From Pseudomonas kilonensis (GTDB lineage: Bacteria; Pseudomonadota; Gammaproteobacteria; Pseudomonadales; Pseudomonadaceae): a DNA stretch of 64,000 nt. Numbering within the stretch: the first letter of the stretch is position 1; every line of letters starts with the position of its first letter. Of the stretch, positions 25,601 through 28,600 are shown one piece after another. Position numbers and translations under genes: made by a program. The notes under the pieces were generated by a model. The model had not been told where the DNA came from. It saw only the letters and a program-made list of their open reading frames with translations, and ran no database searches. Location: NCBI RefSeq assembly GCF_001269885.1, contig NZ_LHVH01000025.1, forward strand, positions 1 to 64,000. Direction: 5' to 3'.

Positions 25601-28600
25601 ATCGAGCACGAAGCGGGTCCGCAGGCTCTCGTGACGTGCCACCAGTGCATCGAAGCTCCGTTGCAACGCGCCACGGTCGAGGGCACCGCGCAAACGCAGC
25701 GCTGCGGGAATGTGATAGGCGCTGCTGGTGGGTTCCAGTTGCCAGAGGAACCACTGCCGTTGCTGGGCGAACGAGAGCGCCAGCGGCTGGTCGCGAGCAA
25801 TGCGTGGGATGCTCGCTTCATCGTGCGCCGATGCCGTGCCCATGGCCTCGACAAACGCCCGCAGGCTGTGATGGGCGAACAACAGGCGCAACGGCACTTG
25901 GATACTCAGTTGCTGGCGAATCCTCGACATCACCTGGGTGGCGAGCAAGGAATGGCCGCCCAGTTCGAAGAAGTTGTCGTCCAGGCCGACCCGCTGGACC
26001 TTGAGGATATCGGCCCAGATCGTCGCCACCGCCTGCTGCGTGGGCGTCTGCGGCGCGACATAAGTTTTCTGCCACTGGCTGGCATCGGGCTTGGGCAACT
26101 GCTTGCGATCCAGCTTGCCGTTGGGCGTCAGCGGGAAGCGCGGCAACAGCACCACGTGGGACGGCACCATGTAGTCGGGCAGGTTGACCTTGAGCCGTGC
26201 GCTGAGGCTGTCGCGCAGGCCGCTCTGGGCGGCGGCGTCCAGGTCATTCAGTTCGGCGACTGGAACGATGTACGCCACCAACGCCTGGCCGCCTGGCGCG
26301 TCCTGGGCCAGCACCGCCGCTTCGCGCACGCTGTCCTGTTCCAGCAGGCGCGCCTCGATCTCTCCCAACTCGATGCGAAAACCGCGGATCTTCACTTGAT
26401 GGTCGATGCGCCCGAGGTATTCGAGGAGGCCGTCGGCACGCTGGCGCGCCAGGTCACCGGTGCGATACAGACGCTCGCCGGCGACAAACGGATGGGGCAC
26501 GAAACGTTCGGCGGTCAGCGCCGGGCGCTGGAAATAACCACGGGCCAAGCCTTCGCCGCCGATCAGCAATTCCCCGGCCACGCCATAAGGCACCGGCATC
26601 AGGTCGGCACCGACAATGTACAGCGTGGTGTTGTCGATGGGCCCGCCGATCCACGGTTGTACGGCCTGGGTCTGCAACGGGTGCAAGGCCGACCAGATGG
26701 TGGTTTCCGTCGGGCCATAGAGGTTCCACACTTCACCGCCGAGGGCGAGCATGCGCACGGCCAGTTCCCGGGGCAACGCCTCGCCACCGCACAGGCATTT
26801 GCAGCCACGCAGACCCTGGGCGTTTTCATTGTCCAGCAACATGCGCCAGGTCGACGGCGTAGCTTGCAGCACATTGACCTGCTCGGCCGCGATCAATGCC
26901 AACACCGCGTACGGGTCCTGGGCGACGTGCTGGCCGGTCAGCACGATGCATGCGCCGACCATCAGCGGCACGTAGATCTCCAGGCCGAAAATATCGAACG
27001 AGAACGTGGTCAGCGACAACGCCCGGTCCTGGGCCGTCATGCCCGGTGCCTTGGCCATGCTCGCGACGAAGTTGGTCAGCGCGCCGTGGCGCACCATTAC
27101 GCCCTTGGGCTTGCCGGTGGAGCCGGAGGTGTAGATCGCGTAGGCCAGGTGCTCCGCATCCAGGCGCGTCGCCGGCGCCTCGCAGCTATAGCCGTCGAGC
27201 CAGTCACCCTCCTGGTCCAACACCAATGTCTTAACGCCAACCCCGGCCCCTGTGGGAGCGAGCCCGTGGGAGCAAAGCTTGCTCGCGATAGCGTCGGCAC
27301 ACCCACCATCACCATTGACTGAACTACCGCCATCGCGAGCAAGCTTTGCTCCCACAGGCTCGCTCCCACAGGACAGCGGTAGCTGGTTGAGCAACGAGCT
27401 TTGGGTCAGCAGCAGCTCGATGCCGCTGTCTTCGATCATGTACGCCAGGCGGTCCTGGGGGAACGCCGGGTCCAGCGGCAGGTAGGCGCCGCCGGCCTTG
27501 AGAATCGCCAGCAGGCCCACCAGCATGTGCGCGCTGCGCTCCACGGCAATGCCCACAAGGACATCGGAGGTCACACCAAGGCTCTGCAGTTTCCCCGCCA
27601 GTTGATTGGCCCGGGCATTGAGTTGACCGTAGCTCCAGCGCTCGCCGTCGATCACCAGCGCCGGGGCGTCCGGGGTCCGCGCCGCTTGCCTTTCGAACAG
27701 TTGATGGACAAAACCCGCCTCGGGCGCTGGCGCCGCGGTGCGCTGGCTGTCGTCGAGCAGGGCCAGGCGCTCGGCCGCGTCGAGCAGCGGCAATTCACCG
27801 ATACGCTGCCCCGGGTCGGCCACGATGGCCCGCAACAGGTTCTGCCAATGCCCGGCCATGCGCGCCATCGTCTCGGCGCCAAACAGGTCGGTGGCATAGA
27901 TCAGTGCAGCCGAAAGGCCTTCGCCATGCTCGACGGTTTCGAGGGTGAGGTCGAATTGTGCCGTGTGAGAATCCCAGCTCAGCCCCTCGACTTTCAAGGC
28001 ACCGACCGGCCCCTCGCCCGCCGGGCCTTGGGTCCGGTGGTTGAACATCACTTGGAACAGCGGGCTGTGGCTCAGGTTGCGCTCAGGCTGCAACGCTTCG
28101 ACCAGTTGCTCGAACGGCAGCTCTTGATGGGCCTGGGCGCCCAGGGCTGTCTGTTTCACTTGTTGCAGCAAGGCGCCAAACGCATCCTCGCTCCGCACAT
28201 CGCTGCCCTGTACCTGGGTGTTGACGAAAAAGCCAATCAGGCGCTCGGTCTCGACCCGGTTGCGGTTGGCCGTCGGCACGCCGACGCGGATATCGTTCTG
28301 GCCGCTGTAGCGATGCAGCAGCGCCTGGAACGACGCCAGCAAAATCATGAACAGGCTGACGCCCTCGCGCTGGGCCATGTGCTTGAGGTCGCCGGCCAGT
28401 ACCGCGTCGATGGCGAGTTCCAGCCGCGCGCCGCGATAGCTCATCACCGCCGGACGGGGGAAGTCGGTCGGCAATTCCAGCACCGGTTGCTGGCCACCCA
28501 AGCGTGCGGTCCAGTATTCCAACTGGCGCTCGCGCTCACCCGCTTCCATCCAGTGCCGCTGCCAGATGGCGTAGTCGGCGTACTGGATCGGCAGCGCCGG

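What the first reader, a model, noticed from the sequence alone, without database searches (positions are those of the whole stretch)
27250..27372. REPINs translated in frame inside three NRPS adenylation domains
REP/REPIN elements are normally extragenic. Here three copies (23951-24072, 27250-27372, 41792-41915) lie inside A domains for Ser, Gly and Gly. Each adds about 40 residues (CGSEPVGAKLARDGG... ASKLCSH) between core motifs A2 and A3, without a stop codon or frameshift. The homologous Thr, Gln, Lys and hydroxyOrn domains lack the insert. Either this loop tolerates insertion, or the inserts disable or tune the modules.
Basis: seen in the sequence. Interest (0 to 1): 0.85.

Follow-up and report, generated by a model that had tools for sequence, protein, structure and literature searches.

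The report
REPINs translated inside pyoverdine synthetase modules
A tiny mobile hairpin element that normally sits between genes is built, in frame, into three repeats of a giant siderophore-making enzyme; related soil Pseudomonas species carry it at the same spot, and it has been copied from repeat to repeat without, as far as can be seen, breaking the enzyme.

Summary
Confirmed. Three 124-nt REPINs (23949-24072, 27249-27372, 41792-41915) lie in frame in the A2-A3 loop of the Ser, Gly and Gly adenylation domains of a nine-module, pyoverdine-type synthetase; the other six A domains lack them. I read 19 such inserts in 7 Pseudomonas species, three of them single-contig genomes; all are open, 90 or 120 nt from TGT to ACA. 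Four related synthetases lack them and three modules carry scar-like remnants. The last Gly module got its copy by gene conversion from the first: their flank is 81-94% identical in 6 genomes with insert or scar, 40-52% in 6 without, while A4-A8 stays at 66-73%. The inserted residues show no codon-position constraint (variable sites 10/9/9 against 87/41/300 in cores), yet the hairpin persists. P. thivervalensis DSM 13194, with three inserts, is reported to make pyoverdine. Best reading: a tolerated mobile passenger spread between modules by ectopic conversion. Translated intragenic REPs are already known; the NRPS setting and module-to-module spread look new.

The parts
16652..29233 (-). NRPS subunit of 4193 aa, modules Gly (insert), Ser (insert), OHOrn
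   Evidence: A-domain signatures
29230..40317 (-). NRPS subunit of 3695 aa, modules Thr, Thr, Gln; no insert
40318..52932 (-). NRPS subunit of 4204 aa, modules Lys, OHOrn, Gly (insert)
27249..27372 (-). REPIN in the Gly1 A domain, reads CGSEPVGAKLARDGGSSVNGDGGCADAIASKLCSHGLAPT
23949..24072 (-). REPIN in the Ser A domain; its flank towards A3 is Gly1-like (87% DNA identity to own Gly1; 51-63% in 11 other genomes)
41792..41915 (-). REPIN in the Gly2 A domain, with Gly1-like flank (94% DNA identity over 102 nt)
26093..27703 (-). Gly1 A domain with insert, modelled by AlphaFold2; residues 112-155 (insert region) low-confidence coil
22799..24409 (-). Ser A domain with insert; AMP-binding match over profile positions 2-384 of 384
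40648..42246 (-). Gly2 A domain with insert; AMP-binding match over profile positions 1-384 of 384

Best explanation
A REPIN, the short hairpin element normally moved between genes by a RAYT transposase, entered the loop between core motifs A2 and A3 of a pyoverdine synthetase A domain in an ancestor of a small Pseudomonas clade, by luck in an open frame with a length divisible by three. The loop tolerates about 30-45 extra, probably disordered residues, so the enzyme kept working. Ectopic gene conversion between homologous A domains then copied the element with roughly 100-220 nt of flank into other modules (clearly Gly1 to Gly2 before the crown species split, and Gly1 to Ser in this strain), upstream of the specificity pocket, so the product did not change. 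Since then the copies have changed by frame-preserving steps: a nested REPIN (+30 nt), swapped loops, and in-frame deletions leaving CG or CGS remnants. Shown: sites, frames, distribution, conversion tracts, absence of residue-level constraint, kept hairpin. Inferred: RAYT-mediated entry, one founding insertion, neutrality, that the G159 remnants are deletions, that the element is really translated, and that the loop is harmless in the folded protein.
For: Same loop and codon phase in 19 copies of 7 species, 14 of 90 nt and 5 of 120 nt from TGT to ACA, none with a stop. Four related synthetases without insert (G372, G110, G094, G260; A2-A3 66-69 aa) fall outside the carriers in the tree. Gly1-Gly2 identity in the 102 nt from insert to A3 is 94, 85, 93, 88, 81, 87% in the six genomes whose Gly2 has the insert or scar and 52, 40, 48, 46, 49, 43% in the six without; upstream, A2 to insert, it is 78-97 against 69-76%; A4-A8 stays at 66-73% in all 12. 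The acquired flank is the one that insert-free species have in Gly1, which sets the direction. In six crown genomes the REPIN is as alike between modules of one genome (89.1%, 16 pairs) as between the same module of different genomes (89.1%, 40 pairs), while A4-A8 is 61.4 against 94.8%. Variable sites by codon position: inserts 10/9/9, cores 87/41/300; Fisher p 8e-5 for the third-position share. AlphaFold2: insert segment pLDDT about 23-31, mean of the whole 76. P. thivervalensis LMG 21626T = DSM 13194T makes pyoverdine PYOthi according to PMC8515041 (passages); contig NZ_LHVE01000012 of DSM 13194 carries three inserts. Isolate 3F12 makes Lys-AcOHOrn-Gly-Thr-Thr-Gln-Gly-Ser-cOHOrn (PMC8888394, table passage), the order read from this window.
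Against: The Ser insert of P. thivervalensis is closer to REPINs outside the NRPS genes of other genomes (92%) than to the Ser inserts of G388 and G124 (88%), so that copy may be a separate entry or a replacement by an extragenic REPIN (40 candidates scored per genome). G159 and G297 are joined with support of only 37, so the G159 'scars' could be pre-insertion sequence. I saw neither the PYOthi structure nor the 3F12 genome, so activity of the insert-bearing modules themselves is inferred. The flat codon-position pattern rests on 28 variable sites in copies that are not independent. The kept hairpin (mean -66.0 kcal/mol for 14 NRPS copies, -60.4 for 63 other REPINs of this genome, -38.1 for synonymous recodings) could mean DNA- or RNA-level selection rather than neutrality. 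Upstream boundaries of the inserts differ by several codons between copies. The AlphaFold2 model has further low stretches (193-199, 387-398).
Confidence: 0.78

Rival explanations
1. Each module was hit independently: the A2-A3 loop of this NRPS is a REPIN insertion hot spot.
For: Three loop types of the element occur; the P. thivervalensis Ser copy is nearer to REPINs outside the NRPS genes than to its orthologues; upstream boundaries differ by some codons.
Against: Identical codon phase and orientation in all 19 copies, and the flanks of Gly2 (and of Ser in this strain) were replaced together with the element, which an insertion cannot do.
Confidence: 0.12
2. The REPIN is not passive: its near-identical 90-120 nt and hairpin seed ectopic recombination, so the element drives conversion between NRPS modules around itself.
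For: The raised Gly1-Gly2 identity is centred on the element, covers the 120 nt before and the 102 nt after it, and is not seen from A3 on or before A2, in 12 genomes. Nested and swapped element types show repeated exchange.
Against: Conversion is seen where the element is because the element marks it; no rate was measured, and the Ser flank was converted in 1 of 7 carriers only.
Confidence: 0.25
3. The inserts act through RNA: a stem of about 40 base pairs in the message slows ribosomes or invites RNase III and so tunes folding or amount of the synthetase.
For: -97 to -106 kcal/mol, z -13 to -15; a long stem is kept in all 19 copies (-60.5 to -100.3 kcal/mol), and the 14 short ones are far stronger than synonymous recodings.
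Against: REPINs elsewhere in the genome have the same kind of hairpin; four related species manage without, and G159 and one G124 module have only remnants.
Confidence: 0.1
4. The insert has become a functional protein segment (domesticated loop).
For: Retained in 19 module copies of 7 species.
Against: No third-codon-position excess (10/9/9 against 87/41/300), length varies between 30 and 40 residues, low-confidence coil in the model, absent in related species.
Confidence: 0.04
5. The inserts inactivate the modules, or are an assembly artefact.
For: The window comes from a draft of 44 contigs with repeated modules.
Against: Inserts at the same site in single-contig genomes G124, G388, G266; core motifs and AMP-binding matches intact; a three-insert strain is reported to make pyoverdine.
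Confidence: 0.03

Closest known systems
Intragenic REPs (GTAG/CGTC REPs inside genes; PMC3733652, passages read)
   Same: REPs or REP dimers lie inside ORFs and are counted as coding; dimers or grouped repeats add 20-30 residues, clusters 43-82.
   Different: The passages name DNA repair and other genes; 'nonribosomal', 'peptide synthetase' and 'pyoverdine' occur 0 times in the main text (its supplementary list of intragenic REPs was not read). No spread between repeats of one protein is described in the passages seen.
Rickettsia palindromic elements (RPE; PMC10969869 passages)
   Same: Short palindromic elements (about 150 bp) kept in frame in protein genes.
   Different: Other element families and host; RPEs sit in many unrelated genes, here one site in homologous modules. 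RPEs are said to encode a conserved peptide; here residues look unconstrained.
REPINs of P. fluorescens SBW25 (PMC3116915 passages)
   Same: REP doublet in inverted orientation forming a hairpin; hundreds of REPs per genome; RAYT-type genes present.
   Different: There primarily extragenic: the top 16-mers occur 1,067 times and only 14 overlap genes. Here in the middle of a conserved catalytic domain.
A-domain recombination in pyoverdine synthetases (PMC11366639, abstract, section 10 part 1 and passages)
   Same: Intra-cluster recombination between A domains is proposed there.
   Different: There it changes specificity; here the converted tract stops before A3 and leaves specificity untouched. 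'insertion' and 'repeat' occur 0 times in its main text.

Membership tests
REPIN | Two REP sequences in inverted orientation forming one hairpin | tested here: met
REPIN | Same REP abundant elsewhere in the genome | tested here: met
   263, 286 and 538 exact REP cores of three types in the own genome, both strands added; 130 BLAST matches from the 40 candidates scored of 1023, both strands
REPIN | RAYT-type (Y1) transposase gene in the genome | tested here: met
   4 Y1_Tnp matches over the cut-off, one with an internal TGA; that one of them serves this REP was not tested
REPIN | Extragenic location | tested here: not met
   in frame inside A domains; location is usual, not strictly defining
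Intragenic, translated REP | Whole element inside an ORF, open and in frame | tested here: met
   translation itself was not observed
Intragenic, translated REP | Host protein recognisable on both sides, with insert-free orthologues | tested here: met
Rickettsia palindromic element | Belongs to an RPE sequence family | not tested
   no RPE sequence was compared; the element matches Pseudomonas REPs
Domesticated (exapted) insert | Purifying selection on the encoded residues | tested here: not met
Functional NRPS A domain | Core motifs A3-A10 and AMP-binding fold intact | tested here: met
   motifs read by eye in the alignment
Functional NRPS A domain | Activates its amino acid | not testable with these tools
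   needs an enzyme assay or LC-MS

The most novel reading that the evidence does not exclude
A mobile hairpin element drives the evolution of a modular megasynthetase from within: a REPIN housed in the A2-A3 loop acts as a shared recombination seed that repeatedly converts neighbouring modules around itself, keeps exchanging with the extragenic REPIN population, and persists as a translated, still REPIN-shaped sequence. It would be a natural, tolerated insertion and exchange point in NRPS A domains.
Probability: 0.25. Interest if true: 0.8.

Novelty: new variant of a known kind. Interest (0 to 1): 0.62.

Why it matters
It shows a MITE-like element living in the coding sequence of a siderophore assembly line in several species, and being copied from module to module by gene conversion. 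That gives a natural marker for conversion between NRPS modules, and a naturally tested loop of A domains that accepts 30-45 foreign residues, of use to NRPS engineers. It also bears on how REPINs persist: here the reading frame, not the residues, is guarded while the hairpin stays intact.

Tried and rejected
Independent insertion in each module: rejected as the main story because Gly2 (and own Ser) flanks are Gly1-like; kept open for the Ser copy of P. thivervalensis and P. zanjanensis.

Copying of the genome's commonest REP type into the NRPS: counts in nine genomes, six of them carriers. Fits: G000 (its three nested copies contain the commonest type), G266 (three copies) and two of three G388 copies. 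Does not fit: the third G388 copy, G124 (commonest type C, 768; Gly1 copy nested type A, Ser copy mixed T/C), G297 (commonest C; inserts T) and G209 (T slightly commoner, 520 against 390; inserts C). Suggestive at most.

Other REPINs of the own genome inside genes: of 72 other elements (62 from 39 fetched loci chosen among the matches from the window), 28 open frames of 150 aa or more overlapped one; 10 of these 28 were scanned with Pfam and none had a domain spanning the REPIN. The own genome was not surveyed whole.

Chance of a usable frame: of 144 orientations of those 72 elements, 34 had a length divisible by three and 21 of them were also open in the TGT frame, so the first capture is not astonishing; the 72 are a sample biased towards resemblance to the NRPS copies.

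A second protein search with more candidates scored (up to 97 per genome, E up to 1e-10) found the insert in 1 of 57 relatives, the own genome only; the genus members listed in that set were also in the 398.

Whether other A2-A3 loops in the genus carry REPs of other kinds: not answered. The scan of genome contigs needs the LVLD-like flank and gave 33 stretches. Of the nine Pseudomonas stretches, which I read, six (three species) are NRPS loops and three are not; I did not read the other 24.

AlphaFold2 was run once, for Gly1 only, on 43 related sequences.

Literature: ten searches, of which some aimed at REPs or REPINs in genes or NRPS; none of the listings or passages seen describes REPINs in NRPS genes. 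The one paper was not opened. Subscription papers and preprints are not held, so this is not proof of absence.

Full report
Observation. The three elements are REPINs of 124 nt at 23949-24072, 27249-27372 and 41792-41915. They lie in minus-strand NRPS ORFs of 4193 aa (16652-29233) and 4204 aa (40318-52932) that stay open through them. The encoded segment is 40 residues, CGSEPVGAKLARDGG..IASKLCSH.L.PT. It sits between core motifs A2 and A3: spacing is 110-112 residues in these three domains and 66-68 in the other six. Residues at specificity positions (positions and codes recalled, read, one misplaced column disregarded) fit Lys-OHOrn-Gly*-Thr-Thr-Gln-Gly*-Ser*-OHOrn, where * marks an insert.

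Element anatomy. On the coding strand each copy folds into a long stem: -98.7, -106.2 and -96.9 kcal/mol for the Ser, Gly1 and Gly2 copies, z-scores -14.4, -15.0, -12.9, none of 200 shuffles as good. The element is a nest: a GCAAAGC-type REPIN within the outer arms of a GCGAGC-type REPIN, adding 15 nt to each arm, 30 nt in all. Among the 40 candidates scored (of 1023) in the own genome, matches longer than 80 nt outside the three NRPS copies are at most 86% identical. Three of the six reading frames of the 27249 copy are free of stops.

Distribution. A protein search of 398 genomes of the genus (at most 13 candidates scored in each, list of matches cut near E 3e-7) gave NRPS hits with the insert in at least 6: own G000, G124, G388, G209, G266, G297. 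A pattern scan of genome contigs (which may leave out records near the window) added P. zanjanensis SWRI12; equal contig lengths show G209 to be P. thivervalensis DSM 13194 and G297 Pseudomonas sp. RGM2987. In total I read 19 inserts in 7 species: G000 3, G124 2, G388 3, G209 3, G266 3, G297 2, P. zanjanensis 3. All are open; 14 measure 90 nt and 5 measure 120 nt from TGT to the end of the last REP. G124, G388 and G266 are single-contig genomes, which speaks against an assembly artefact.

Insert-free relatives and remnants. A search with the Gly1 catalytic core in 398 genomes led to synthetases with 90-93% identical cores. G372, G110, G094 and G260 have A2-A3 spacings of 66-69 residues and no insert. 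G159 has short remnants in Gly1 (SCGVNT) and Ser (QFCGSGV), and G124 Gly2 has LSCGSGVGV. The 9 bases TGTGGGAGC of the G159 Ser and G124 Gly2 remnants are the first 9 bases of the REP, which suggests in-frame internal deletion; for G159 a pre-insertion state cannot be excluded. A tree of the A3-to-end regions of the three modules (3660 nt, rooted on G094 and G260) puts the six genomes with Gly2 insert or scar in one crown (support 100), G297 and G159 next (joined with support 37), and the four insert-free genomes outside.

Spread by conversion. Within each of 12 genomes I compared the three modules segment by segment. From the insert to A3 (102 nt), Gly1 and Gly2 are 94, 85, 93, 88, 81 and 87% identical in G000, G124, G388, G266, G209 and P. 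zanjanensis, but 52, 40, 48, 46, 49 and 43% in G297, G159, G372, G110, G094 and G260, whose Gly2 has no insert. From A2 to the insert the values are 78-97 against 69-76%. A3-A4 (71-83%), A4-A5 (66-72%), A5-A8 (68-73%) and A8-end (64-66%) do not separate the two groups. Gly1-Ser identity in the flank is 87% in the own genome and 51-63% in the other 11. So the element arrived in Gly2, and was overwritten in the own Ser module, together with flanking Gly1 sequence: ectopic gene conversion. Across the six crown genomes the element is as similar between modules of one genome (89.1%, 16 pairs) as between the same module of different genomes (89.1%, 40 pairs; 88.3% without the three pairs of the close species G209 and P. 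zanjanensis), whereas A4-A8 gives 61.4 against 94.8%. The tract ends before the specificity region, so the product is unchanged.

What is and is not constrained. Among the 14 short copies 10, 9 and 9 sites vary at codon positions 1, 2 and 3; in the A3-A8 cores of the three modules of the seven carriers the numbers are 87, 41 and 300 (Fisher p 8e-5 for the third-position share; copies are not independent). The residues therefore look unselected while frame and stop-freedom are kept. The hairpin is also kept: mean -66.0 kcal/mol (sd 3.3) in the 14 short NRPS copies, -60.4 (sd 6.6) in 63 other REPINs of the own genome, -38.1 (sd 5.7) in synonymous recodings of the same peptides. This may reflect recent conversion and exchange or selection at the nucleic-acid level; I cannot separate these.

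Exchange with extragenic REPINs. With the G266 Ser insert as query in three genomes, the best matches are NRPS copies (97-98% for three others, in G266 and G388), and copies outside the NRPS genes start at 91%. With the P. thivervalensis Ser insert in six genomes, REPINs outside the NRPS genes reach 92% (89% in its own genome) while the G388 and G124 Ser inserts are at 88%. In both candidates per genome were scored. So these NRPS copies mostly form their own lineage, but at least one may have been replaced from, or inserted from, the extragenic population. Counts of three REP core types in nine genomes gave mixed support for such exchange.

Does the enzyme work? The three domains match Pfam AMP-binding from profile position 1 or 2 to 384 of 384, and the core motifs look intact. 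AlphaFold2 on 43 sequences (mean pLDDT 76.0, pTM 0.70) leaves residues 112-155 as low-confidence coil between two strands, with smaller low stretches at 193-199 and 387-398, and Foldseek matches the model to A domains such as 8www, 1amu and PvdL 9up2. Passages of PMC8515041 report, citing Matthijs et al. 2016, that P. thivervalensis LMG 21626T makes pyoverdine PYOthi; the same paper equates LMG 21626T with DSM 13194T, of which the assembly scanned here has three inserts. A table passage of PMC8888394 gives pyoverdine 3F12 as Lys-AcOHOrn-Gly-Thr-Thr-Gln-Gly-Ser-cOHOrn, the order predicted here; I have not seen that isolate's genome. Activity of the inserted modules is therefore likely but inferred.

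Mechanism. Most likely: RAYT-mediated entry of a REPIN into a permissive loop in a usable frame (21 of 144 orientations of 72 other own REPINs would be both divisible by three and open in that frame), then module-to-module copying by ectopic conversion, then frame-preserving turnover. Four Y1 transposase matches exist in the own genome, one with an internal stop. That the REPIN itself promotes the conversion is possible and unproven.

Known or new. Intragenic REPs read as coding are described (PMC3733652, passages), and Rickettsia palindromic elements are the classic parallel (PMC10969869 passages). In SBW25 only 14 of the most frequent REP 16-mers (1,067 occurrences) overlap genes (PMC3116915 passages). 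None of ten searches of an open-access library (five of them aimed at this) showed a paper on REPINs in NRPS genes. I therefore call it a new variant of a known kind: new for the host protein, the conservation across species and the spread between modules.

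Noticed in passing
window 6462-7540: Tandem array of eight REPIN-containing units of about 132-136 nt, ending near a TonB-dependent receptor gene at 7930-10404 (-).
   Followed up: no
window 53033-53160 and 59809-59948: REPINs of a second class (TGTGGCGAGGGGATTTATCCCCG), one a 46-nt perfect inverted repeat with a 45-nt gap.
   Followed up: no
window 7930-10404 (-) and 12693-15137 (+): Two TonB-dependent receptors with STN domain on either side of an ABC transporter gene (10949-12598), next to the NRPS genes: possibly two pyoverdine receptors.
   Followed up: partly
window 33942-34495 and 37119-37672: The two Thr modules are 90-96% identical over these stretches, a recent module duplication or conversion; related genomes also have a Thr pair.
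   Followed up: partly
L036 (P. thivervalensis, G209) 12903-14513 and L049 (P. zanjanensis) 2958-4529: The Ser-module REPIN of P. thivervalensis and P. zanjanensis has a different loop; the P. thivervalensis copy is nearer to REPINs outside NRPS genes (92%) than to the Ser inserts of G388 and G124 (88%): possible second entry or replacement.
   Followed up: partly
G000:C9:285266-285604 (L161): Best Y1 transposase (RAYT-like) match of the own genome has an internal TGA; three others are open.
   Followed up: no
window 16506-16600: A further REPIN lies just downstream of the stop of the last NRPS gene, where it could be part of the mRNA 3' end.
   Followed up: no
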